Shown: positions 3-11,833 of the stretch, in pieces
Layout: each line of letters begins with the position of its first letter
Position numbering within the stretch: the stretch's first letter is position 1
Source: Bacteroidaceae bacterium
GTDB taxonomy: Bacteria > Bacteroidota > Bacteroidia > Bacteroidales > Bacteroidaceae
Reading direction: 5' to 3'
NCBI GenBank assembly: GCA_017557635.1
Contig: JAFYYH010000016.1
Span: 248,001-312,000, forward strand
Length of the DNA: 64,000 nucleotides
Made by a program: the position numbers and the translations under genes
The notes under the pieces: generated by a model
Database searches by the model: none
What the model was told of the DNA's origin: nothing
The model's input: only the letters and a program-made list of their open reading frames with translations

Positions 3-179
3 CGCAACACGGCTTACGTCTGGGTAAGCAGTAACGGCACAGACTGGAGGGTATATTATGGAAAGTCTGCAGTAGGCACTTACCATCACAACTACTACAA
101 GGGCTTCTTTGCACTCCGTCCTGCATACTTTTTGGATGGTGATGCAAAACTTGTATCGTTCGACTACAAGCCTCTGTGA
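3..179 (+). CDS. C-terminal fragment of an unidentified protein (cut by window edge)
   Basis: An open frame runs from the left edge to a TGA at 177-179, giving 58 residues rich in Tyr, Trp and Phe (for example FFALRPAYFLDGD near the end). The style resembles the C-termini of secreted or surface Bacteroidales proteins with FISUMP- or fimbrillin-like beta domains, but too little is present to name a family. Its 3' end lies 37 nt before the putative carA promoter, so it is probably a separate transcription unit. Confidence 0.5.
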   Translation, partial: RNTAYVWVSSNGTDWRVYYGKSAVGTYHHNYYKGFFALRPAYFLDGDAKLVSFDYKPL

Positions 180-216
180 TAATGCTAAAATTGTTGAAAA
201 CTTATCACTTACATAA

Positions 217-246
217 TTGAGGATTGGAGGAAAAGCCGTAACTTTG
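217..246 (+). promoter_or_regulatory. Bacteroidota-type promoter for the carA leader
   Basis: TTG at 217-219 and TAACTTTG at 239-246 are separated by 19 nt, an exact match to the Bacteroidota -33/-7 consensus (TTG, about 19 nt, TAnnTTTG). Transcription would begin near 251-254, leaving a leader of about 160 nt before carA. Confidence 0.75.
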
Positions 247-250
247 CGGC

Positions 251-337
251 ATGCAAAGAATAGGAGGAAATATAAGTTGCTCACCAAAGCATAAGCAGAC
301 CGGTGGGGATAATGTTTCCGAGAGAAATATTTTTTAG
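251..337 (+). CDS. Putative 28-codon leader peptide upstream of carA
   Basis: An ATG at 251 opens a 28-codon frame ending with TAG at 335-337, exactly one base before the terminator-like hairpin at 338-368. It begins at or very near the expected transcription start, so its translation would be nearly leaderless, or would use an internal start after the strong AGGAGG at 262-267. The last codons are A/T-rich (AAT ATT TTT TAG). The position between promoter and terminator suggests an attenuation leader, but no homologue is recognised and it may be a chance frame. Confidence 0.35.
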   Translation: MQRIGGNISCSPKHKQTGGDNVSERNIF

Positions 338-374
338 AAGGAGGAATTGTTTTTTACAGTTTCTCCTTTTTTTT
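338..374 (+). terminator. Intrinsic terminator / possible attenuator in the carA leader
   Basis: AAGGAGGAA (338-346) pairs with TTTCTCCTT (360-368) as a 9-bp stem with one G-U pair, followed by a run of T to 374. It lies 41 nt before the carA start and downstream of the carA promoter, so it is placed to attenuate carAB rather than to end the upstream gene. Confidence 0.6.
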
Positions 375-415
375 ACCGCAAGGTTGAGAAGAGTTTAACA
401 ACAATAATAGAGAGA

Positions 416-1477
416 ATGACAGTATCATTGATTTTGGCCGACGGCACCTGCTTCAAGGGTGAATCATTCGGCTATGAACATCCCGTAAGCGGTGAGTTGG
501 TATTCAACACCGCTATGGCAGGTTATCCTGAGATCCTGACTGAGCCTGCATCACGCGGTCAGCTCATTGTAATGACCTATCCGGTCATTGGTAACTATGG
601 TATACAGCCCATGACTCCCGATGAGTTCGGACTGCCCACCAATGCAGAGAGTGCAAGCGCACAGGCACGCGCCCTGATAGTAAGTGAGGTCAGTGATTTC
701 TACAGTCACTGGAACGCCAAGGAGTCACTCGGCGAGTGGATGAAGCGCAATAAGATTGTAGGTGTTATGGGTGTCGATACCCGTGAACTTACCAAGCACA
801 TCCGTAACCACGGCAGCATGACCGCCAAGATCCTGTTTGACGGCCAGAAGAAACCCGAGGAGTACGCCTACACAAATATGCTTCCGGAGGTATCGGTCGA
901 GAAACCTGTTACCTATAACGAGGGTGCATCAAAGAAGGTGGTACTGGTAGACTGCGGTGTTAAGGCCGGAGTCGTACGCTGCCTGATCAATGAAGACCTT
1001 GAGGTTGTACGCGTTCCCTGGAACTATGACTACTCAAAGATTAAGATGGACGGTCTTGTAATCTCAGACGGTCCCGGTAACCCCAGTTACTGCAGTGAGG
1101 TTGTAACACGCCTGCAGAAGTTCATGGCCAAGAACGACACTCCCATTCTGGGTATCGGCATGGGATGCCTGCTGCTGGGTCTTGCCGGCGGTATGGATAC
1201 ATACAAGCTCAAGTTCGGTCACCACACTCAGAATCAGCCGGTACAGCTGGTTGGAACAGACTGTTGCTACATCACCACACAGAACCACAACTACGCCATC
1301 CGTGAGGATTCAGTTGTAGGTCAGTGGAAGGTATACCTCAAGAACCTGAACGATGATTCAGTTGAGGGCATCTACAACACACGCAAGCCCTGGGTAGGCG
1401 TGATGTTCCACTCAGAGAGCGATCAGGTTAACACTGACGCCATGTTTATTTACGATGATTTTGTTTCAAAACTCTAA
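416..1477 (+). CDS. carA: Carbamoyl-phosphate synthetase small subunit, lacking the catalytic Cys
   Basis: 353 residues, close to the usual CarA length. The N-terminal CPSase small domain (ADGTCFKGESFGYE, GELVFNTAMAGYPE) is followed by a class I glutamine amidotransferase domain with SDGPGNP, FGHHTQNQP, TTQNHNYAI and FHSES. The normal nucleophile motif GICxGHQ reads GIGMGCLL: the Cys position is Gly248 and the GHQ His is Cys251, while His332 and Glu334 of the triad remain. Glutamine hydrolysis should therefore be lost, leaving a structural subunit that supports ammonia-dependent synthesis by CarB, as in vertebrate CPS I. The ATG at 416 is preferred over an upstream TTG at 347 because homology begins at TVSLILADG. 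carB follows after 12 nt. Confidence 0.93.
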   Translation: MTVSLILADGTCFKGESFGYEHPVSGELVFNTAMAGYPEILTEPASRGQLIVMTYPVIGNYGIQPMTPDEFGLPTNAESASAQARALIVSEVSDFYSHWNAKESLGEWMKRNKIVGVMGVDTRELTKHIRNHGSMTAKILFDGQKKPEEYAYTNMLPEVSVEKPVTYNEGASKKVVLVDCGVKAGVVRCLINEDLEVVRVPWNYDYSKIKMDGLVISDGPGNPSYCSEVVTRLQKFMAKNDTPILGIGMGCLLLGLAGGMDTYKLKFGHHTQNQPVQLVGTDCCYITTQNHNYAIREDSVVGQWKVYLKNLNDDSVEGIYNTRKPWVGVMFHSESDQVNTDAMFIYDDFVSKL

Positions 1478-1489
1478 CACCCCGCTACT

Positions 1490-4400
1490 ATGGCATTGAA
1501 GAAATACAAGAAAGTGCTGCTCCTGGGTTCAGGTGCACTCAAGATAGGTGAGGCCGGCGAATTCGATTACTCAGGTTCACAGGCCCTCAAGGCTCTTAAG
1601 GAGGAGAACATTGAGACTATCCTCATTAATCCTAACATCGCTACAGTACAGACCAGTGAGGGTGTAGCTGACAGAGTTTATTTCTACCCTGTAACCCCGT
1701 TCTTTGTAGAGAAGGTAATTGCTAAGGAGCGTCCCGATGCAATCCTGCTGGCATTCGGTGGTCAGACCGCCCTGAACTGCGGTGTTGCCCTGGAGCAGAA
1801 CGGTGTTCTGGATAAATATAAGGTAAAGGTTCTGGGTACTCAGGTTAAGGCCATCATGGACACTGAGGACCGCGACCTCTTTATCAAGCGTCTGGATGAG
1901 ATAGGTGTACAGACCATCAAGAGCCACGCCGTAGAGACTATGGACGATGCACGCGCAGCCGCACGTGAGCTGGGTTACCCGGTTATCATCCGTTCTGCAT
2001 ACGCTCTGGGCGGTCTTGGTTCAGGTTTCTGCGACAATGAGGAGGAACTGAACAAGCTGGCCGAGAAGTCATTCTCATTCTCACCGCAGATTCTGGTTGA
2101 GAAGAGCCTCAAGGGCTGGAAGGAGATTGAGTTTGAGTGCGTGAACGATAAGAGCGGCAACTCAATCATCGTCTGCTCGATGGAGAACTTTGACCCGCTG
2201 GGAATCCATACCGGTGAGAGTATCGTAGTTGCTCCTACACAGACCCTGACTCACCACGAGGTGCAGAAACTTGAGGAGCTGACCATCCGCATTGCCCGTC
2301 ACATCGGCATCGTAGGTGAGTGCAACATCCAGTTCGCCTTTGACCCGCAGTCTGAGGAGTACCGCGTAATCGAGGTTAACGCCCGTCTGAGCCGCTCATC
2401 GGCCCTGGCATCAAAGGCTACAGGTTATCCTCTGGCTTTCGTTGCCTGCAAGCTGGGTCTTGGTTACAACCTCTATGAACTCAAGAACTCCATTACAAAG
2501 GATACAACCGATTTCTTTGAGCCCTCTGTTGACTATGTAGTCTGCAAGATTCCCCGTTGGGATTTGAGCAAGTTCCACGGTGTTGACCGTGAGATCGGCT
2601 CTTCAATGAAGTCTGTAGGTGAGGTTATGTCTATCGGCCGCAGCTTTGAGGAGGTTATCCAGAAGGGTATCCGTATGATCGGTCAGGGCATGCACGGATT
2701 CGTTGAGAACAAGAGCATCAAGTTCGATGATCTGGACAAGGCACTCAAGGAGCCTACCGATAAGCGTCTGTTCGCCATCAGCCAGGCCTTCAGCGAGGGT
2801 TACACCATTGACCGCATCTGGGAACTCACCAAGATTGACAAGTGGTTCCTGAACCGCCTGAAGGGTATTGTTGACCTGTCAAAGCAGTTGCACAAGTGCA
2901 AGGGTCTGGATGCCCTGAGCGAGGATATGATCCGCAAGGCCAAGAAGATCGGTTACTCAGACTTCCAGATTGCACGTGCCATCGGTCTTGAGAAGAGCAT
3001 GGGCTCACAGGCCGGCCTGCTGGCTGTACGTAACAAGCGTAAGAGCCTGGGCATTGTACCTTACGTTAAGCAGATAGATACCCTGGGCGGTGAGTATCAG
3101 GCTAAGGAGAACTACCTCTACATGACATACAACGGCTGCGCACATGACATACCGTTCTTTGATGACAAGAAGTCAATCATCGTTATCGGCTCTGGCGCAT
3201 ACCGTATCGGTTCATCTGTTGAGTTTGACTGGTGCGGCGTTCAGGCTCTGAACACCGTCCGCAAGGAGGGTTACCGCAACATCGTCATCAACTGCAACCC
3301 TGAGACAGTAAGTACTGACTACGACGTTACAGACCGTCTGTTCTTTGATGAGCTGACATTTGAGCGCGTAATGGATATCATCGAGCTGGAGAATCCCTAC
3401 GGTGTGATTGTATCAACCGGCGGACAGATCCCCAACAACCTGGCTATGAAGCTGGATGCAATGAAAGTGCCTATCCTGGGTACAAGCGCCAAGGATATCG
3501 ATAACGCCGAGGACCGTGAGAAGTTCTCTGCAATGCTTGACCGCATAGGCGTTGACCAGCCCGAGTGGAGCGAGCTGACCTCTATGAAGGAGATCGGCAA
3601 GTTCATCGACAAGGTTGGATTCCCAGTACTGGTTCGTCCTTCATACGTGCTCTCAGGTGCTGCAATGAACGTCTGCAGTAACCAGGAGGAGCTGGAGAGA
3701 TTCCTGCAGCTGGCCGCTGAGGTATCAAAGGAGCACCCTGTTGTTGTAAGCCGCTTCATTGAGAACGCCAAGGAGGTTGAGATGGATGCAGTTGCCAAGG
3801 ACGGTGAGATCATTGCTTACGCCATCAGTGAGCACATTGAGTTTGCCGGTGTACACTCAGGTGACGCTACCATCCAGTTCCCGCCCCAGAAACTCTACGT
3901 TGAGACTGTTAAGCGTATCAAGCGAATCAGCCGTCAGATTGCAAAGGAACTTCATATCAACGGACCTTTCAATATCCAGTATCTGGCCCGTGAGAACGAT
4001 ATCAAGGTAATTGAGTGTAACCTGCGTGCTTCACGTTCATTCCCGTTCGTAAGCAAGGTGCTCAAGATCAACCTGATTGAGATAGCAACCAAGATCATGC
4101 TTGGCATTCCTGTAGAGGCACCAGAGAAGAGCCTGTTCGATATCGACTATGTTGGTATCAAGGCTTCACAGTTCTCATTCAACCGTCTGCAGAAGGCCGA
4201 TCCTGTTTTGGGTGTAGATATGGCATCAACCGGTGAGGTTGGCTGCCTTGGTGATGACCAGCGCTACGCCATCCTGGAGTCAATGCTCTCAGTAGGCTAC
4301 CGCATCCCCAAGAAGAACGTACTCCTGTCAACCGGTACCGCAAAGCAGAAAGCTGCCATGCTGGATGCCGCCAAGATGCTGGTTTCAAACGGATACAACC

Positions 4401-4717
4401 TCTATGCTACCGGTGGTACAGCAAAGTACCTTGAGGATAACGGCATAAAGAACACCCGCGTATATTGGCCCAGCGAGGAGGGACAGCAGCCTCAGGCTCT
4501 TGACATGCTGCACAACAAGCAGATTGACATGGTGGTGAACATTCCCAAGAATCTCACCCAGCATGAGCTCACAAACGGATACAAGATCCGTCGTGCTGCA
4601 ATCGACCTGAACATTCCGCTGATCACCAACGCCCGATTGGCAAGCTCGTTCATCAATGCCTTCTGCACAGTAGACATAGATGACATACCCATCAAGAGTT
4701 GGGATAGTTTCAAGTGA
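1490..4717 (+). CDS. carB: Carbamoyl-phosphate synthetase large subunit (CPS I-like)
   Basis: 1075 residues with the duplicated ATP-grasp architecture: a carboxyphosphate half (VIEVNARLSRSSALASKATG), an oligomerisation region, a carbamoyl-phosphate half (VIECNLRASRSFPFVSK) and a C-terminal MGS-like regulatory domain. It makes carbamoyl phosphate from bicarbonate, two ATP and ammonia for arginine and pyrimidine synthesis. The second half and regulatory domain read much closer to animal CPS I/CAD than to E. coli CarB as I recall them. Thr974, Thr977 and Trp993 (in YWPSEEG) have the spacing of the N-acetylglutamate-site residues of human CPS I, and Asn1017 sits in a matching VNIP motif. It is co-transcribed with carA. 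Its stop codon lies inside the left arm of the palindromic element that follows. Confidence 0.96.
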   Translation: MALKKYKKVLLLGSGALKIGEAGEFDYSGSQALKALKEENIETILINPNIATVQTSEGVADRVYFYPVTPFFVEKVIAKERPDAILLAFGGQTALNCGVALEQNGVLDKYKVKVLGTQVKAIMDTEDRDLFIKRLDEIGVQTIKSHAVETMDDARAAARELGYPVIIRSAYALGGLGSGFCDNEEELNKLAEKSFSFSPQILVEKSLKGWKEIEFECVNDKSGNSIIVCSMENFDPLGIHTGESIVVAPTQTLTHHEVQKLEELTIRIARHIGIVGECNIQFAFDPQSEEYRVIEVNARLSRSSALASKATGYPLAFVACKLGLGYNLYELKNSITKDTTDFFEPSVDYVVCKIPRWDLSKFHGVDREIGSSMKSVGEVMSIGRSFEEVIQKGIRMIGQGMHGFVENKSIKFDDLDKALKEPTDKRLFAISQAFSEGYTIDRIWELTKIDKWFLNRLKGIVDLSKQLHKCKGLDALSEDMIRKAKKIGYSDFQIARAIGLEKSMGSQAGLLAVRNKRKSLGIVPYVKQIDTLGGEYQAKENYLYMTYNGCAHDIPFFDDKKSIIVIGSGAYRIGSSVEFDWCGVQALNTVRKEGYRNIVINCNPETVSTDYDVTDRLFFDELTFERVMDIIELENPYGVIVSTGGQIPNNLAMKLDAMKVPILGTSAKDIDNAEDREKFSAMLDRIGVDQPEWSELTSMKEIGKFIDKVGFPVLVRPSYVLSGAAMNVCSNQEELERFLQLAAEVSKEHPVVVSRFIENAKEVEMDAVAKDGEIIAYAISEHIEFAGVHSGDATIQFPPQKLYVETVKRIKRISRQIAKELHINGPFNIQYLARENDIKVIECNLRASRSFPFVSKVLKINLIEIATKIMLGIPVEAPEKSLFDIDYVGIKASQFSFNRLQKADPVLGVDMASTGEVGCLGDDQRYAILESMLSVGYRIPKKNVLLSTGTAKQKAAMLDAAKMLVSNGYNLYATGGTAKYLEDNGIKNTRVYWPSEEGQQPQALDMLHNKQIDMVVNIPKNLTQHELTNGYKIRRAAIDLNIPLITNARLASSFINAFCTVDIDDIPIKSWDSFK

Positions 4718-4846
4718 TACCATTGGGGACGGTTCCGTTTGGTATCGTTTTGCTAAATAAGAAACAGCGGCTTAATTGTAAGTCGCTGTTCTTTTTGTAG
4801 TTGGATATAAAACGATACCAAACGGAACCGTCCCCAGTGGTATCAC
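4714..4846. repeat. REPIN-like palindromic element 1
   Basis: Arms 4714-4751 and 4809-4846 are inverted copies, 38 nt long with one T/C difference (a G-U pair in RNA). Each arm is itself an imperfect palindrome bounded by GATACCA and TGGTATC around the core TTGGGGACGGTTCCGTT, the layout of a REP sequence; two inverted REPs make a REPIN. The spacer holds a separate terminator hairpin. The stop codons of both convergent neighbours (carB TGA 4715-4717; GH13 TGA 4845-4843) lie in the arm ends. A related copy is at 57276-57409. No RAYT transposase is in the window. Confidence 0.8.
4763..4796 (+). terminator. Terminator inside REPIN-like element 1
   Basis: AACAGCG-G-CTTA (4763-4774) pairs with TAAG-T-CGCTGTT (4779-4790) around the loop ATTG, followed by CTTTTTG. 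On the other strand the stem is followed by TTTCTTATTT, so it can act for both carAB and the converging GH13 gene. Confidence 0.8.
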
Positions 4847-6513
4847 CTCCAGCGGAGGATGACGCCGGATTGGGCGGGAACGGTGACGCGGATGGGGGAG
4901 TCGGGATGGATGTTAGCCTTGAAAGACTGGCCTGAGAGCAGTTCCTTTACTGCTGCTCCGTCCTTCTGCGAGAGTTCCATGTAGTCAAACGCATGCTGCG
5001 GGATATTGACTGTGGTATTCATGGGCTGGTCGCTGAAGTTGGTGACCACCAGAATGGCGTCCTTGCCGTCGGCACGAAGGAATGCGTACTGCTTGTGCGG
5101 ATTGAAAGACTCTGAGAGCGGATTCACGTACATAAGGTCAAAGAACTTTCCGTCACGTACGGCGTGCTCCTGATTGCAGATACGCAGCAGAGTGGAGTAG
5201 AAGGCCCTGAGTTCACGCTCATCCCTGGTCAGTCGGGCATCGTTCCATTTTCCGTCGTTATAGAGGCGTGAAAGGGTATCGGGAGCCCAATAATCAAAGA
5301 TCGTGGTACGTCCGTCAAGTCCGCTGAATCCCTCCTGGTCCATGCCGGATTCGCCTACCTCCTGACCTGAATAAACCATGACAGGACAGCTGTCCATAAG
5401 GGCTGATACAATCATGGCAGGACGTCCCTTTTGTGCCGTTCCACCGAAGAATCGGGATGCTATGCGCTGCTCGTCATGGTTCTCCATGAAGTGCAGCATG
5501 CTCTGGCCGTTGCCGCCGTTCTGCTGCCAGCAACGGGTTATTGCCGTGGCCGATTCACGACCCTCGACAACGGCACGCAACGTGTCGTAAAGACCCACCT
5601 TGTCATATATGTAGTCAAAGTGGCCGATGTTGATGTAATCCCAGTAGGATCCAGGGTTATAGATTTCGGCGATGAAACGTATCTTTTTGTGCGCTTTCTT
5701 TACTCTTGATACGGCCCAGTCCCAGAACTGAACGGGTACCATCTCGGCCATGTCGCAACGGAATGCGTCAACACCTTTTCCGGCCCAGAAAAGAAGTATG
5801 TCGAGCATCTTCTTCCAGGTGTCGGGAACGGGGTCGAAACAGCGCTGTCCGCCGGCCGTGTAATCAACTCCGTAGTTCAGTTTTACGGTTTCATACCAGT
5901 CTGAATATGTGGGAGTTGCGCTGAATTTGTCATTGCCTGTGGCACGGGCCGGAAACTCCTTGTAGTCACCCCAGTCGGGCTCTCCTGAAAGGGCCTGTCC
6001 GGGCAGGTAATAGAAGTTGTTCCGGGGGCTGAACGCAAGTGTTTTGTCATCGGCCTCACCAAGGTCTTTTACACCTTTGGGTTTGGCAATGGAGAGGTAC
6101 TCGCGGGCAACGTGGTTGGGTACGAAATCCATGATGAATTTCATGCCTGCCGAGTGGACACGGTCAACCAGACTTTGGAATTCGGCCATGCGGTCGGGAA
6201 CGGAGAGTGCAAGGTCGGGATCTATGTCGTAATAGTCACGGATGGCGTAGGGTGAGCCGGCACGTCCCTTGACGGTTCCCGGATGTGACACGGGGATGCC
6301 GTACTTGCTGTAATCTGTGCAGGATGCGTGGGCTATCAGGCCGGTGAACCATATATGAGTAACTCCCATCGCCTTGATGTTCTCAAGGACGGTGGGAGTA
6401 TAACTTTCCAGCTTGCCGGAACCATTGGTGCTGATGTCACCTCCAGGCACATTCCTGCCTGCGCTGTTGCAGCAAACACGCGTGAATATCTGGTAGATGA
6501 CAGCCTTTTCCAT
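4843..6513 (-). CDS. Glycoside hydrolase family 13 (alpha-amylase superfamily), cytoplasmic
   Basis: 556 residues with the four GH13 regions in order: DFVPNH, GVDAFRCDMAEM (nucleophile Asp254), FIAEIYNP (acid/base Glu283) and MENHDEQ (Asp347). A C-terminal beta domain follows (ILVVTNFSDQPMNTTVNIP). There is no signal peptide, so it probably acts in the cytoplasm on maltodextrin or glycogen-derived oligosaccharides; the exact specificity cannot be read. The ATG at 6513, 5 nt after the fabD stop, is chosen because family homology starts at EKAVIYQIFTR; an in-frame extension to 6570 would overlap fabD. It is transcribed with fabD. The stop codon lies in REPIN-like element 1. Confidence 0.88.
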   Translation of the reverse strand: MEKAVIYQIFTRVCCNSAGRNVPGGDISTNGSGKLESYTPTVLENIKAMGVTHIWFTGLIAHASCTDYSKYGIPVSHPGTVKGRAGSPYAIRDYYDIDPDLALSVPDRMAEFQSLVDRVHSAGMKFIMDFVPNHVAREYLSIAKPKGVKDLGEADDKTLAFSPRNNFYYLPGQALSGEPDWGDYKEFPARATGNDKFSATPTYSDWYETVKLNYGVDYTAGGQRCFDPVPDTWKKMLDILLFWAGKGVDAFRCDMAEMVPVQFWDWAVSRVKKAHKKIRFIAEIYNPGSYWDYINIGHFDYIYDKVGLYDTLRAVVEGRESATAITRCWQQNGGNGQSMLHFMENHDEQRIASRFFGGTAQKGRPAMIVSALMDSCPVMVYSGQEVGESGMDQEGFSGLDGRTTIFDYWAPDTLSRLYNDGKWNDARLTRDERELRAFYSTLLRICNQEHAVRDGKFFDLMYVNPLSESFNPHKQYAFLRADGKDAILVVTNFSDQPMNTTVNIPQHAFDYMELSQKDGAAVKELLSGQSFKANIHPDSPIRVTVPAQSGVILRWR

Positions 6514-6518
6514 AGGTC

Positions 6519-7382
6519 TTAGCCTCTGATTCTCTTGATGAGGCCGGTCAGGACTGCGCCGGGACCGCACTCGGTGAACTCCTCAGCGCCGTCGGCAATC
6601 ATGTTGAGGACGCTCTGAGTCCAGCGTACCGGTGAATTGAGCTGTGTCACCAGGTTTGCCTTGATCTCCTCAGGGTTGGTATGAGGCTTGGCGTCAACAT
6701 TCTGGTAAATGGGGCATACCGGGTTGTTGAACTGTGTGTTGCTGATAGCCTCAGCCAGTTCATCCTTGGCAGGAGTCATAAGGGGTGAGTGGAATGCACC
6801 GCCTACAACCAGGGGCAGGGCACGCTTTGCGCCGGCCTCGGTCATGAGGGGGCATGCAGCGGCGATGGCCTCTTTTGAACCTGAGATAACAACCTGTCCG
6901 GGGCTGTTGTAGTTGGCGGGAACAACCACCATGCCCTTTGCGTTCAGGTCAGCGCAGATGGCCTCGATCCTGTCATCGGCCAGACCGATGATGGCAGCCA
7001 TTGTGCCGGGTACCTTCTCGCAGCATTTCTGCATTGCACCCGCACGCTGTGAAACCAGTTTCAGACCGCTCTCGAATGAGAGTGCGCCGCAGGCTACAAG
7101 TGCTGAAAACTCGCCCAGAGAGTGTCCTGCAACCATGTCAGGCTTGAAATCAGCGCCGTGTGACTTGGCAACTGCAACTGAATGGATGAACACTGCGGGC
7201 TGTGTTATATCTGTGCGGCGCAGATCTTCGTCAGAGCCGCTGAACATGATGTCTGAAATCTTGAATCCGAGGATTGAATCGGCCTCTGCAAACAACTCTT
7301 TTGCCCAGTCAAACTGGTCATACAGGTCCTTACCCATGCCCGAGAACTGGGCACCCTGTCCGGGAAAAACGTATGCTTTCAT
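6519..7382 (-). CDS. fabD: Malonyl-CoA:ACP transacylase
   Basis: 287 residues, the typical FabD length. It shows the N-terminal FPGQGAQFSGMG motif, the nucleophile elbow GHSLGEFS (Ser88) with a downstream catalytic His in GGAFHSPLM, and the oxyanion-side motif NYNSPGQ. It transfers malonyl groups from CoA to acyl carrier protein in the cytoplasm, the step that feeds chain elongation in fatty-acid synthesis. It is followed after 5 nt by the GH13 gene on the same strand, a pairing without an obvious metabolic link. No other fab gene is adjacent. Confidence 0.95.
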   Translation of the reverse strand: MKAYVFPGQGAQFSGMGKDLYDQFDWAKELFAEADSILGFKISDIMFSGSDEDLRRTDITQPAVFIHSVAVAKSHGADFKPDMVAGHSLGEFSALVACGALSFESGLKLVSQRAGAMQKCCEKVPGTMAAIIGLADDRIEAICADLNAKGMVVVPANYNSPGQVVISGSKEAIAAACPLMTEAGAKRALPLVVGGAFHSPLMTPAKDELAEAISNTQFNNPVCPIYQNVDAKPHTNPEEIKANLVTQLNSPVRWTQSVLNMIADGAEEFTECGPGAVLTGLIKRIRG

Positions 7383-7414
7383 ATCTAAATGTTAAGTATA
7401 TCCAGTAATTTGAT

Positions 7415-7422
7415 TATCTTTG
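7415..7422 (+). promoter_or_regulatory. -7 element upstream of the exopolysaccharide locus
   Basis: TATCTTTG fits the TAnnTTTG -7 consensus and points to the sugar transferase gene at 7585. The expected -33 region has only TTA-like sequence. The resulting leader of about 160 nt has no recognised element; no UpxY/UpxZ antitermination genes are present. Confidence 0.5.
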
Positions 7423-7584
7423 CGCGACTTTTCCAAACAATTGAAAAAGCGTACTTAAAAGCGCTTGTGAGTGCAAAAATAGTCATCATTCCGAATGTGC
7501 AGGAATGGATTATTGACATTTTTATGCGTCGCTACACAATTATTGCTTTTTGTGCGCGTTATATAATAAACCTGTAAATCTACA

Positions 7585-8235
7585 ATGTTGAACTACAAAA
7601 TACAGAGCTACGGTAGCATGTACCGTATGGAGCATTCGGATGCAATGGGATCCTTTCAGTTGGGACTGAAGAGGGCTTTTGACATCATCTTTTCAGTGTT
7701 GGGTCTGGTGCTCTTTTCTCCGCTGATTCTGATATTCTCCGCCATCCTGTTTTACGACAAGGGTCCTGTATTCTTCAAACAGGAGAGAGTGGGCTACAAA
7801 GGAAAACCGTTCCTGATCTACAAGTTCCGTACAATGCGCACTGATGCCGAATCAGACGGTATTCCGCGTCTTGAGAGTGAACGCAACAAATATCTGACTC
7901 CGTTCGGAGGCTTCCTGCGTGCACATCACCTTGACGAACTTCCGCAGCTTTGGAATGTGCTTAAGGGTGACATGTCATTTGTAGGTCCCCGTCCGGAACG
8001 CCAGTATTTCATTGACCAGATAAACCGTGAGACCGATGACTACCGTTACATCTATCTGATGCGTCCGGGAGTCACATCATACGCAACATTATTCAACGGC
8101 TACACAGACACAATGGACAAGATGCTTAAGCGTCTTGAATATGACCTGGACTATCTGGATAACCGCAATATCTTCACTGACCTGGGAATCATCGCAAGGA
8201 CTTTCTTCTCGGTGTTCAGTGGCAAGAAATTCTGA
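7585..8235 (+). CDS. Undecaprenyl-phosphate sugar phosphotransferase (initiating transferase)
   Basis: 216 residues: one N-terminal hydrophobic segment (about residues 33-55) followed by the bacterial sugar transferase domain, with FFKQERVGYKGKPFLIYKFRTMR, the LDELPQLWNVLKGDMSFVGPRPE block and the catalytic Asp-Glu pair in LDELPQ. It belongs to the short WbaP/PglC-type class that moves a sugar-1-phosphate onto undecaprenyl phosphate on the inner face of the membrane, starting the repeat unit. It is the first gene of the exopolysaccharide locus; the export gene follows after 26 nt. The block before LDELPQ reads RAHH rather than the common RKTS, a small departure. The sugar donor cannot be inferred. 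Confidence 0.92.
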   Translation: MLNYKIQSYGSMYRMEHSDAMGSFQLGLKRAFDIIFSVLGLVLFSPLILIFSAILFYDKGPVFFKQERVGYKGKPFLIYKFRTMRTDAESDGIPRLESERNKYLTPFGGFLRAHHLDELPQLWNVLKGDMSFVGPRPERQYFIDQINRETDDYRYIYLMRPGVTSYATLFNGYTDTMDKMLKRLEYDLDYLDNRNIFTDLGIIARTFFSVFSGKKF

Positions 8236-8261
8236 TTTTGAATTAGTTACTACCGTTTTTT

Positions 8262-10769
8262 ATGAGAAAGTATCTTGTTTTGTCATTGTTCCTGTTCACC
8301 GGTCTGTCTGCTTTTGCGCAGATGTCGGAAGATAAGATAATACAGTACGTTCAGGAACAGCAGGCCAAGGGAGTTTCACAGGAACAGATTGTATATAATC
8401 TGAACAAGAGAGGTGTTACAGTCCAACAGCTCCAGCGGATGCGCGAGAAATATGAAAAGCAGCAGGCCACTGGCGTATTGGGCAATACGATTCCGTCTCA
8501 GGGCTCCTCAACATCCCGTTCAAGAACGGGGCAGGGGGAGTCTTTTAATTTGGTTAATCCTGCCGACCAGTCATTAGGCGGCACACAGATGACCGATAGC
8601 AGAACCCTTGAGAAGGAGAGACTCCAGAGCATGTACAACGAGTCCATGTTCCTTTTTGTGGATTCCATATATCTTCTGAAACAGTCTCTGCTTCCCCAGA
8701 AGAAAGAGATTTACGGTCATGACATTTTCAAGAGCCAGAATCTGACTTTCGAACCGAGTTCCAGTCTGGCTACTCCGCAGAACTACCGTCTCGGCCCCGG
8801 TGATGAGGTCATCATCGATATATGGGGCGCAGCCCAGAGTTCCATCCGTGAGGTGATTTCACCCGACGGCAATATCATGGTTCAGGACCTGGGACCTGTT
8901 TACCTCAACGGAAAAACCATACAGGAGGCCGATGCTTATATAAAGAAGGTATTCAGCCAGATCTATTCAGGACTGGACGGTTCCGATTCAAATTCGAGCA
9001 TCAAACTGTCACTCGGCCAGAACCGCTCAGTACTGGTGAATGTGATGGGTGACGTTGAGAATCCCGGCACATATCAGGTTTCATCATTTGCCACCGTATT
9101 CAATGCAATATACATGGCAGGCGGTGTAAATGACCTGGGATCACTCAGGGAGATCAAACTCTATCATGAGAATGAGGAGGTGGCCAAGATCGACATGTAT
9201 GACTATATCCGCAACGGCAAGGTACAGGATGACATCCGTCTGAATGACAATGACGTTGTAATAGTATCACCTCATTCACTTCTGGTCAACATTGACGGAC
9301 GCGTACGCAGGCCGATGCTTTATGAGATGACTCCCGAGGAATCACTCTCAGACCTTATTGATTATGCCGGCGGTCTGGAGTCAAACGCATATAAGAAGGA
9401 TGTACGTGTAGTCCGCATGGGCGATTTCCAGCGTCAGATCTTTACTGTCACAAAGGAACAGCAGTCCAGTTTCAAACTCGTAGACGGTGATTCGGTCTAT
9501 GTTGATTCCATTCAGGTGTCATTTGCCAATATGGCCGAGGTACGCGGTGCCGTATACCGTCCGGGACAGTTCCAGATAGACGGTGACATAACTACTGTCA
9601 AAGGCCTGATTGAGGCTGCCGGCGGTCTTAAGGAGGATGCATTCCCATCAAGAGCACTGCTGAGCCGCACCAATCCCGACAAGACCCTTACGAACCTTGC
9701 CATCGACATAAAGGGACTGATGGAAGGTACCGCACAGGATGAGACATTGCGTAATCATGACGTACTGTTCATTCCCAGTCTGTTTGACGTAGGTGAGGTC
9801 AAGACATTCAGCGTATACGGTGAGGTGCTGTTCCCCGGCGATTACCGTTATGCCGACAATACAAGCATTGAGGACCTGATCCTGCAGGCCGGCGGTCTTA
9901 AGGAGGATGCCTCTCTGAGTAAGGTGGATGTGGTACGCCGCAACCGTGACAAGGAGGCAGTCGAGAAAGCCCAGTCACTTGCCGAGACATTCTCATTCAG
10001 TATCAACGAAGACCTTTCAATCCAGGACAACGATTTCCGTCTGGAGCCATACGATGAGGTATATATCCGCCGCAGTCCGGGTTATTCGGTTAACCGTCGA
10101 GTAATTGTGGAGGGTGAGGTTACATTCCCCGGATATTATTCTCTGGCTACCAATAACGAGCGTCTGAGTGACATCATGGAGAGAGTAGGCCAGTTCAGTT
10201 CTGAGGCGTATCCCGAGGGAGCGCGTCTGGAACGTAAGATGACCGACGACGAGAGAGCCCGTATGCATGACATCGCAGAGATTCTTGCGGGTAATGACTC
10301 CATTGCACTGGCCAAGGCTGTGGACAAGCTCATCAACATGACAACCTTTGAGGTCGGTATCAACCTTAAGGAGGCAGTTGAAAAGCCGGGTGGTCCTGCC
10401 GATATCGTTCTTCGTGACGGTGACCGAATCATAGTTCCGGTATTCACCAATACCGTTAAGATCAACGGTGAGGTGATGTTCTCGAACACTACACCTTATG
10501 TAAAGGGTAAGAACCTGAAATACTACATCGAGAAGGCCGGTGGATACTCACAGAGAGCAAAGAAGAGCAAGGCTTACGTGGTTTATATGAACGGTTCCGT
10601 AGCCAAGGCCAAGAAACGTTCATCCAAACTGGTACAGCCGGGTTGCGAGATAGTCGTTCCTGCCCGTCAGGTACGTGAGGGACTCACAGCAACCGAGATT
10701 CTCAGCTTAGGCTCGACATCAGCATCATTGGCAACAGTTGTATTGGCTCTCATGAGTCTCTTGAAATGA
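8262..10769 (+). CDS. Polysaccharide export outer-membrane protein with six SLBB repeats
   Basis: 835 residues with a signal peptide (about 1-20, ending AFAQ), a short helical N-terminal segment, a Poly_export domain (LGPGDEVIIDIWG near residue 176) and six SLBB-type repeats starting near residues 257, 343, 425, 516, 614 and 732, each with a GxVxxPGxY-like strand and a later AGG turn. A hydrophobic C-terminal stretch (about 812-833) could be a membrane segment. This is the large Wza-like form of Bacteroidales that carries capsule or EPS across the outer membrane. Repeats 3 and 4 share an identical stretch of over 20 nt (near 9618 and 9890), a sign of internal duplication. Its stop overlaps the next start (ATGA). 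Confidence 0.92.
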   Translation: MRKYLVLSLFLFTGLSAFAQMSEDKIIQYVQEQQAKGVSQEQIVYNLNKRGVTVQQLQRMREKYEKQQATGVLGNTIPSQGSSTSRSRTGQGESFNLVNPADQSLGGTQMTDSRTLEKERLQSMYNESMFLFVDSIYLLKQSLLPQKKEIYGHDIFKSQNLTFEPSSSLATPQNYRLGPGDEVIIDIWGAAQSSIREVISPDGNIMVQDLGPVYLNGKTIQEADAYIKKVFSQIYSGLDGSDSNSSIKLSLGQNRSVLVNVMGDVENPGTYQVSSFATVFNAIYMAGGVNDLGSLREIKLYHENEEVAKIDMYDYIRNGKVQDDIRLNDNDVVIVSPHSLLVNIDGRVRRPMLYEMTPEESLSDLIDYAGGLESNAYKKDVRVVRMGDFQRQIFTVTKEQQSSFKLVDGDSVYVDSIQVSFANMAEVRGAVYRPGQFQIDGDITTVKGLIEAAGGLKEDAFPSRALLSRTNPDKTLTNLAIDIKGLMEGTAQDETLRNHDVLFIPSLFDVGEVKTFSVYGEVLFPGDYRYADNTSIEDLILQAGGLKEDASLSKVDVVRRNRDKEAVEKAQSLAETFSFSINEDLSIQDNDFRLEPYDEVYIRRSPGYSVNRRVIVEGEVTFPGYYSLATNNERLSDIMERVGQFSSEAYPEGARLERKMTDDERARMHDIAEILAGNDSIALAKAVDKLINMTTFEVGINLKEAVEKPGGPADIVLRDGDRIIVPVFTNTVKINGEVMFSNTTPYVKGKNLKYYIEKAGGYSQRAKKSKAYVVYMNGSVAKAKKRSSKLVQPGCEIVVPARQVREGLTATEILSLGSTSASLATVVLALMSLLK

Positions 10770-11833
10770 CGGTTATGGAGGACAATCAGAACAAAAAGGA
10801 GAATCTGAAAGAAATCATAGATCTCTTCAAATTACTTTGGGATAAACGCAAGAGGTTAATACTCAATTGCTTTTACGGCGGTGTGCTTTCCATTATCGTG
10901 GCATTCAGCATTCCTAAGGAGTTCACGTCAACTGCCATAATCGCTCCCGAGATTTCACCGTCCCTGGGTATAGGCGGAGGTTTGGGCGCATTGGCTTCGA
11001 TGGCCGGTATCAATGTGGATACCGAGGAAGAGGCTATCTATCCTCAACTCTATCCTCAGGTTGTCTCTACAACTCCCTTCCTTTGTGACCTGGCTGTCAT
11101 TAAGGTTGAAGGAAAGTACAGGAAAGACTCCATTTCCACCAATCTCTATAACTATCTCAGCGAGTATCAGAAAGAGCCATGGTGGGGTAAGGTGCTGGCC
11201 GCTCCGTTCAAGCTGATCAAGCGCGATAAGGTTGAACTGCTGGATGATGACACCGTACTTGATCCCAAACGTCTTAACAGGCAGCAGCAGAAACGCCTGA
11301 AAGAGTTGAATGACAGGATCTCAATTGAATTTGACAAGACATCCAGCGCTATACTGGTGAATGTAACCATGCAGGATGCGGGAATTGCATCAATAGTGGC
11401 CGATGCCGTTACTGAAAACATCCAGAACTATGTGATTGAGTACAGGACAGCCAAGGCCCGCAAGGATATGGATAACACCCAGCGCATGTATGATGAGGCC
11501 AGGGATAACTATTATGCCGCCCAGCGTGCATATGCGGAATACTGCGATCAGCACATGGGAGTGACAAAACTCCAGTATCTCATGGAGCAGGACCGTCTGT
11601 CGGACGAGAAGGATATTGCATACAACCTTTACAATCAGTTGGCCCAGCAGTTGGACATGTGCAGGACCAAACTGCTTGAAAAGACTCCGGTAGTTGTACT
11701 CCTGCAGCCTTCAACCGTTCCTTACAAAGCAACAACCCCCAAGAAGATGATGATAGGAATACTGTTCGTGTTCCTGGCATTCTTTGGAACTGCAGCCTGG
11801 ATTATCGTAAAGGACCGTATTCTTGAAGCTTAA
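10766..11833 (+). CDS. Wzz-type polysaccharide chain-length determinant
   Basis: 355 residues with a transmembrane segment near residues 33-50, a periplasmic coiled-coil region rich in Arg, Gln and Lys (about 150-315), a Pro-rich turn (TPVVVLLQPSTVPYKATTPKK) and a second transmembrane segment at about 330-350. This is the classical polysaccharide co-polymerase layout without a C-terminal tyrosine-kinase domain. It sits in the inner membrane and would set chain length with the polymerase encoded next. It overlaps the export gene by 4 nt and the polymerase gene starts 2 nt after its stop. Confidence 0.9.
   Translation: MTVMEDNQNKKENLKEIIDLFKLLWDKRKRLILNCFYGGVLSIIVAFSIPKEFTSTAIIAPEISPSLGIGGGLGALASMAGINVDTEEEAIYPQLYPQVVSTTPFLCDLAVIKVEGKYRKDSISTNLYNYLSEYQKEPWWGKVLAAPFKLIKRDKVELLDDDTVLDPKRLNRQQQKRLKELNDRISIEFDKTSSAILVNVTMQDAGIASIVADAVTENIQNYVIEYRTAKARKDMDNTQRMYDEARDNYYAAQRAYAEYCDQHMGVTKLQYLMEQDRLSDEKDIAYNLYNQLAQQLDMCRTKLLEKTPVVVLLQPSTVPYKATTPKKMMIGILFVFLAFFGTAAWIIVKDRILEA

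What the first reader, a model, noticed from the sequence alone, without database searches (positions are those of the whole stretch)
4385..4714. CarB regulatory domain carries a vertebrate CPS I-like N-acetylglutamate site
Thr974, Thr977 and Trp993 (YWPSEEGQQP) have the same spacing as the human CPS I residues I recall as Thr1391, Thr1394 and Trp1410 (AWPSQEGQNP), and Asn1017 in VNIP matches the following VINLP Asn. E. coli CarB, which binds UMP/ornithine, has no Trp-Pro-Ser motif. The synthetase half also reads CPS I-like (IECNLRASRSFPFVSK). With the Cys-less CarA, this suggests a bacterial ancestor or analogue of acylglutamate-activated CPS I. Some Bacteroidales make arginine through N-succinylornithine, so N-succinylglutamate would be a natural alternative effector.
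Basis: partly seen in the sequence, partly recalled or inferred. Interest (0 to 1): 0.8.

Follow-up and report, generated by a model that had tools for sequence, protein, structure and literature searches.

The report
Bacterial carbamoyl-phosphate synthetase with dead glutaminase
A genus of herbivore-gut bacteria carries a carbamoyl-phosphate synthetase whose glutamine-splitting subunit looks dead, so it probably runs on free ammonia, as our liver enzyme CPS I does; the claimed acetylglutamate switch is not shown.

Summary
The cited residues are there (T974, T977, W993, N1017), but three carry no signal: all 19 ordinary CarB aligned, E. coli included, have T, T and N in those columns. Only Trp discriminates (W in 120 of 126 Bacteroidota-type CarB, R in 6; K in 19 of 19 ordinary), and it marks a whole clade that also holds human CPS1, not the Cys-less enzymes. 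P1439 and T1443 equivalents are kept; N1449 is Gly, Q1368 and R1371 are Lys. Acylglutamate control is neither indicated nor excluded. Ancestry of CPS I is not supported: this CarB is nested among relatives whose CarA keeps its Cys.

The stronger result is CarA. In the genus (33 of 33 genomes where the site is covered) the glutaminase Cys is G, D or E; glutamine-binding Gln273 is Leu, as in human CPS1; Gly359 is V or I (G in 107 of 107 Cys+ CarA). The gene stays intact under purifying selection. Five of eight genomes at least 90% complete show no other CarA; transcarbamylases are in 37 of 37, carbamate kinase over cut-off in 0 of 37. Best reading: a naturally ammonia-dependent bacterial CPS, convergent with CPS I. 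Nothing was measured and no structure prediction ran.

The parts
416..1477 (+). carA1: small subunit, 353 codons from ATG 416, with a degenerate glutaminase site (E. coli C269 is Gly, H272 Cys, Q273 Leu, S47 Ala, G313 Asn, G359 Val; H353 and E355 kept)
   Evidence: TIGR01368 369.8 bits (cut-off 307.35), so automatic annotation would call it glutamine-hydrolysing
1157..1159 (+). Gly codon at the place of the catalytic Cys (GIGMGCLLLG)
1490..4717 (+). carB1: large subunit, 1075 aa, Bacteroidota/eukaryote type; catalytic residues of both ATP-grasp halves kept
4385..4714 (+). MGS-like allosteric domain (Pfam MGS 957-1046 of CarB) with the T974-T977-W993-N1017 residues

Best explanation
carA1-carB1 encodes an ammonia-dependent carbamoyl-phosphate synthetase. 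CarB1 does the chemistry (bicarbonate phosphorylation, carbamate formation from free NH3, carbamate phosphorylation). CarA1 is kept as a structural partner but can no longer hydrolyse glutamine: nucleophile, glutamine-binding Gln and a Gly that I recall as lining the ammonia tunnel are all replaced. The loss most likely happened once at the base of this herbivore-gut Bacteroidaceae genus (which holds Candidatus Colenecus caballi), in an operon inherited from glutamine-using relatives, and is convergent with vertebrate CPS I. The Trp-bearing allosteric domain is the one of Bacteroidota-type CarB in general; its effector is unknown. Shown by sequence: the substitutions, their presence throughout the genus, kept CarB catalytic residues, purifying selection, no second CarA found in five of eight good genomes. 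Inferred: loss of glutaminase activity, use of free ammonia, and the ammonia-rich gut as the reason.
For: Cys269 replaced by G (29), D (2) or E (2) in 33 distinct genus CarA; Q273 Leu and G313 Asn in 33 of 33; S47 Ala in 27 of 33; human CPS1 has Ser, Leu and Ala at 269, 273 and 47. G359 is V (22) or I (11), but G in 107 of 107 Cys+ CarA. 33 of 33 genomes whose site is covered. dN/dS of carA1 0.04-0.06 in five close pairs. Of 8 genomes at least 90% complete 5 have carA1 as the only CarA found, yet PF02729 transcarbamylases are in 37 of 37, ArgB over cut-off in 37 of 37, carbamate kinase over cut-off in 0 of 37. Fixed CarB changes: 25 of 36 lie in residues 1-400, the half that receives ammonia (P 0.0018 against conserved columns). 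Second, independent case: L065 CarA has C269G, H353Q, E355Q.
Against: No activity was measured. The triad His and Glu are kept in all 33 rows, as in human CPS1. The genome of the window also has an intact carA2-carB2, so here the pair need not be essential. carA1 evolves faster than Cys+ carA, which could also mean decay. E. coli CPS uses ammonia only at very high concentrations (PMC6245113, passages), and nothing shows that CarB1 binds ammonia better. Absence of carA2 rests on draft metagenome assemblies. The test was chosen after seeing the pattern, with domain limits of my own.
Confidence: 0.75

Rival explanations
1. One reading: the allosteric site binds an N-acylglutamate (N-acetyl-, or N-succinylglutamate because arginine is made through succinyl intermediates), which switches the enzyme on.
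For: W993, P1019, T1023, R1034 and the Asp equivalent to D1322 match human W1410, P1439, T1443, R1453 and D1322 in 18 of 18 genus rows; the human paper gives Thr1443, Pro1439/Arg1453 and Asp1322 as binding or switch residues (PMC4655335, section 5). A relative of the Bacteroides succinyl-pathway transcarbamylase is present (pathway in PMC7311316, passages).
Against: N1449, which binds the alpha-carboxylate, is Gly in 18 of 18 and Gly or Asp in the other 108 Bacteroidota-type rows; Q1368 and R1371 are Lys in 18 of 18. The residues are shared by both CarB of this genome and by relatives with Cys+ CarA. From memory, not tested: eukaryotic CAD, not NAG-regulated, also has Trp here. No effector data exist for any Bacteroidota CarB that I saw.
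Confidence: 0.08
2. Glutamine-independent pair as in the best explanation, but regulated by nucleotides or PRPP at the same site, as in E. coli, Bacillus or CAD.
For: T974, T977 and N1017 are the residues shared with nucleotide-regulated CarB.
Against: Lys993, named for UMP binding in E. coli, is Trp; the E. coli ornithine-site Glu892 (site list recalled) is Ala or Ser in the two genus rows checked.
Confidence: 0.35
3. CarA1 still hydrolyses glutamine, with the Cys at position 272 (three residues on) as a moved nucleophile.
For: Cys272 is invariant in 33 of 33, and H353 and E355 are kept.
Against: Gln273 is Leu and G359 is V or I in all 33; Cys272 also occurs in a few Cys269-containing CarA (3 distinct rows), so it is simply an allowed residue; the position is on the helix after the elbow (inference).
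Confidence: 0.05
4. carA1-carB1 is a decaying duplicate and carA2-carB2 does the work.
For: carA1 dN/dS median 0.086 (22 of 36 pairs usable) against 0.015 and 0.021 in Phocaeicola and Prevotella carA (6 of 21 and 8 of 28 pairs usable); this genome has carA2-carB2.
Against: carB1 is 85-97% identical across full-length genus copies with catalytic residues kept; carA1 is an open frame in 33 genomes; five good genomes show no other CarA.
Confidence: 0.08

Closest known systems
Vertebrate CPS I (human CPS1)
   Same: Same large-subunit clade; Cys of the glutaminase lost, with Leu at 273 and (in most) Ala at 47 as in human; Trp, Pro and Thr of the NAG site kept.
   Different: Separate CarA and CarB; nested in Bacteroidales, Cys loss independent; N1449, Q1368, R1371 and F1445 differ; G359 changed here but not in human; no evidence for NAG.
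Glutamine-dependent CarAB of Bacteroides, Phocaeicola, Prevotella
   Same: 76-80% CarB identity among the records compared, same Trp-bearing allosteric domain, and in part of the genus the same purF-like neighbour.
   Different: They keep Cys269, Gln273 (104 of 105 non-genus CarA rows keep Cys; one Cys+ row has Leu at 273) and G359.
Ammonia-shifted CPS III of Alcolapia fish and frog CPS I
   Same: A convergent change of nitrogen donor by loss of glutamine-site residues (PMC7657897, passages).
   Different: Those are animal urea-cycle enzymes; Alcolapia keeps its triad.
E. coli CarAB
   Same: Subunit plan, catalytic residues of CarB, T974, T977 and N1015.
   Different: About 40% CarB identity, working glutaminase, Lys993 in the UMP site, Glu892 in the ornithine site (site list recalled).

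Membership tests
CPS I (ammonia-only, NAG-dependent) | Glutaminase Cys absent | tested here: met
   G, D or E in 33 of 33 distinct genus sequences.
CPS I (ammonia-only, NAG-dependent) | Only free ammonia as nitrogen donor | not testable with these tools
   Inferred from sequence only.
CPS I (ammonia-only, NAG-dependent) | Full set of NAG contacts in the allosteric domain | tested here: not met
   T, T, W, N, P, T kept; N1449 Gly, Q1368 Lys, R1371 Lys, F1445 His or Ser.
CPS I (ammonia-only, NAG-dependent) | Obligate activation by NAG | not testable with these tools
   Needs an enzyme assay.
CPS I (ammonia-only, NAG-dependent) | Single fused polypeptide | tested here: not met
   carA1 416-1477 and carB1 1490-4717 are separate frames.
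CPS I (ammonia-only, NAG-dependent) | Branches with vertebrate CPS I | tested here: not met
   Nested in Bacteroidales; only one eukaryotic sequence was at hand.
Bacteroidota-type CarB | Clade membership with Trp (or Arg) where ordinary CarB has Lys993 | tested here: met
Glutamine-dependent CPS (CPS II, CarAB) | Cys-His-Glu triad in CarA | tested here: not met
   Cys lost, His and Glu kept, although TIGR01368 scores over its cut-off.

The most novel reading that the evidence does not exclude
A bacterial enzyme that rebuilt the whole CPS I logic: free ammonia as the only nitrogen donor plus gating by an N-acylglutamate (most plausibly N-succinylglutamate, an arginine precursor in Bacteroidota), so that the vertebrate NAG site would descend from an old acylglutamate site present before eukaryotic and Bacteroidota CPS parted.
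Probability: 0.08. Interest if true: 0.85.

Novelty: new variant of a known kind. Interest (0 to 1): 0.55.

Why it matters
A review says that glutamine is the physiological nitrogen donor of E. [quoted passage not shown] A genus-wide bacterial CPS with a dead glutaminase, in some genomes the only CPS small subunit found, would be a counter-example testable in E. coli, and a natural replicate of the CPS III to CPS I transition, with different residues (Glu, Asp, Gly) at the Cys site among living species. It predicts that such gut bacteria depend on ambient ammonia for pyrimidines and arginine.

Tried and rejected
Rejected: (a) the four-residue match as evidence for a NAG site: T, T and N are general CarB features. 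(b) Ancestry of CPS I, by the tree. (c) A link between Trp and Cys loss: Trp is in both CarB of this genome and in relatives with Cys+ CarA. (d) Gln at E. coli CarA position 293 as a tunnel block like human Gln318: Q in 21 of 33 genus rows but also in 7 of 107 Cys+ rows, and H in 93 of those. (e) The DNA pattern for GI[G/D/E]MGCLL outside the genus: 37 of 399 sampled family genomes match, 28 of this genus and 9 others; I opened 5 of the 9 (one place each) and none is a CarA. The pattern misses other spellings, e.g. genus genomes G019 and G043. (f) An ArgB beside the second transcarbamylase: it reads as ProB. (g) Carbamate kinase as another source of carbamoyl phosphate: 0 of 37 genomes over cut-off, weak hits in 31.

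Results that do not fit neatly: argininosuccinate synthase TIGR00032 was over its cut-off in 0 of 37 genomes, though 30 show near full-length matches of 237-250 bits; one of the 14 controls was also below cut-off. Of the control clades, one (4 rows) had 15, 2, 12 and 7 fixed changes in the four parts of CarB, another (4 rows) 1, 3, 2 and 1, a third (25 rows) 4, 0, 1 and 0.

Led nowhere: structure prediction (never ran); literature on a Cys-less bacterial CarA: the listings showed no such title (searches listed only part of what they found), which is no proof that none exists.

Full report
What was checked. The window lies in a 2.44 Mb, 89% complete genome (G000, contig C13, 248001-312000). CarB is at 1490-4717, CarA at 416-1477. 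The nearest named records are herbivore-gut metagenome genomes (red deer, reindeer, RUG12511, yak) and Candidatus Colenecus caballi, 87-97% in CarB; Colenecus is placed in Bacteroidaceae. That the C. caballi record is one of the genus genomes (G041) I infer from equal contig length (32,034 bases).

The observation. T974, T977, W993 and N1017 are real and align with human CPS1 T1391, T1394, W1410 and N1437. I aligned human CPS1 with 145 distinct CarB, all from the loci then in hand whose match spanned at least 1000 residues; shorter pieces and duplicates were dropped. They split into 126 Bacteroidota-type rows (18 of this genus) and 19 ordinary rows. T1391 and N1437 are invariant in the 145; T1394 is T in 124 and S in 21. 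So three of the four cited residues are general CarB features; Thr977 and Lys993 serve UMP in E. coli (PMC6245113, passages). Only W1410 separates: W 120 and R 6 of 126; K 19 of 19. Among the 126, WPS is in 98, WPD in 14, WPN in 4, WPL in 4, none of these in 6.

Other NAG contacts. The human structure paper (PMC4655335, section 5 read) adds Gln1368, Asn1449, Thr1443, Pro1439 and the switch pair Asp1322/Arg1453; Arg1371 is named among clinical mutations affecting NAG contacts. In the genus D1322, P1439, T1443 and R1453 are kept in 18 of 18; Q1368, R1371 and N1440 are Lys and N1449 is Gly in 18 of 18; F1445 is His in 17 and Ser in 1.

Where CarB sits. A 55-row tree (quick method) puts human CPS1 with 41 Bacteroidota-type CarB (SH-aLRT 100) apart from 13 ordinary ones; the program warns of long branches, human among them, and the human position at the base of that group is unresolved. 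The window CarB lies within a group of 15 Bacteroidaceae, Tannerellaceae, Paludibacteraceae and Prevotellaceae rows (SH-aLRT 100). In a sample of 148 genomes of the phylum, 17 (this one included) have a full-length match of 57% or more, one more a partial match of 56%; the listed rest are more distant types.

The CarA. Its glutaminase elbow reads GIGMGCLLLG. In E. coli numbering C269 is G (29), D (2) or E (2) in 33 distinct genus sequences; Q273 is L and G313 N in 33; S47 is A in 27; His353 and Glu355 stay in 33. Human CPS1 has S, L and A at 269, 273 and 47. Gly359, recalled as a residue of the ammonia tunnel, is V (22) or I (11) in the genus and G in 107 of 107 Cys+ sequences; it is G in human CPS1. 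Work on fish and frog CPS is cited as showing that loss of glutamine-binding residues shifts CPS towards ammonia (PMC7657897, passages). The human paper gives Ser294 for Cys and a blocked ancestral tunnel as reasons why CPS1 cannot use glutamine.

Distribution. Of 37 genus genomes 18 have both small-subunit genes, 16 carA1 only, 2 carA2 only, 1 neither (my count). The 33 carA1 whose site is covered lack the Cys; in G012 the gene is cut before it. Of the 8 genomes at least 90% complete, 5 show carA1 only (G017 100%, G045 98%, G001 97%, G048 96%, G041 90%), 3 both (G007, G021, G052). In G017 and G001 the CarB search also gave one match only (the other three were not in that search). PF02729 transcarbamylases are in 37 of 37 genomes, two or more copies in 36; ArgB over cut-off in 37 of 37; carbamate kinase over cut-off in 0 of 37; argininosuccinate synthase over cut-off in 0 of 37, with 30 near full-length matches below it. 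In this genome one transcarbamylase is followed by a PyrI-like frame; the other follows proB-proA-like frames and matches PDB 1js1, 2fg6 and 2g7m (588-590 bits), which I recall as the Bacteroides fragilis N-succinylornithine transcarbamylase, with Ser at the place of the Pro I recall as Pro90.

Is carA1 kept? It is an open frame throughout, with dN/dS 0.04-0.06 in five close pairs. It is looser than in relatives: medians 0.086 for genus carA1 (22 of 36 pairs usable), 0.044 for genus carB1 (35 of 36), 0.015 for Phocaeicola carA (6 of 21), 0.021 for Prevotella carA (8 of 28); the rest were saturated at synonymous sites. In G001 the order purF-like, carA1, carB1 seen in Parabacteroides is kept, with Glu at the Cys site; a purF-like frame also lies in the stretches of G041, G045, G047 and G048. 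It is missing from the stretches around the pair in this genome and in G017.

What changed in CarB. Between 18 genus rows and 75 relatives there are 36 fixed differences: 25 in residues 1-400, 5 in 401-553, 5 in 554-936, 1 in 937-1075. Columns conserved in the relatives number 325, 71, 270 and 64 there, which gives P 0.0018 for the excess in the first part (test chosen after seeing the pattern). Three control clades gave 15/2/12/7, 1/3/2/1 and 4/0/1/0. This fits a retooled ammonia-receiving half and does not suggest a special allosteric change. The invariant residues of both ATP-grasp sites (list recalled) are the same in the two genus rows checked as in E. coli.

An independent case. In the Paludibacteraceae record L065 CarA has C269G, H353Q and E355Q beside a WPS-bearing CarB, and it is the only CarA found in that genome. 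Two genomes of its genus keep Cys and HPE, so this loss looks separate and recent; it could also be one assembly's error, which I could not test.

Verdict. The pair most likely forms an ammonia-dependent CPS that works like CPS I in its nitrogen donor without being a member of CPS I. The acylglutamate site is neither shown nor excluded. No structure prediction ran and nothing was measured.

Noticed in passing
L033 (G000:C13:338000-356000), 25-11586: Second CarAB of the same genome (carA2 with Cys and HPE, carB2 65% identical to carB1) in a row that reads gltB, gltD, dapF, a dapL-like aminotransferase, carA2, carB2, purF: nitrogen-assimilation genes beside the glutamine-type CPS.
   Followed up: partly
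L022 / L038 (G026:C20), open frame of 1457 aa: CarA and CarB run as one open frame in another Bacteroidales genome, a bacterial CarA-CarB fusion with Cys kept in CarA. Fused bacterial CPS is mentioned in PMC6022934 (passages).
   Followed up: no
L065, 2858-3925: Paludibacteraceae CarA that lost all three triad residues (C269G, H353Q, E355Q) while two genomes of its genus keep them; the purF-like gene there follows carB.
   Followed up: partly
L037 (G018:C39): A CarB-like frame of 1077 aa with no CarA found in the 11 kb around it; a CarB of the same subtype in a Bacteroides finegoldii record is likewise listed without a neighbouring carA (L189).
   Followed up: no
window 416-1477: TIGR01368 (glutamine-hydrolysing small subunit) scores this Cys-less CarA above its curated cut-off, so routine annotation will name it glutamine-hydrolysing.
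   Followed up: no
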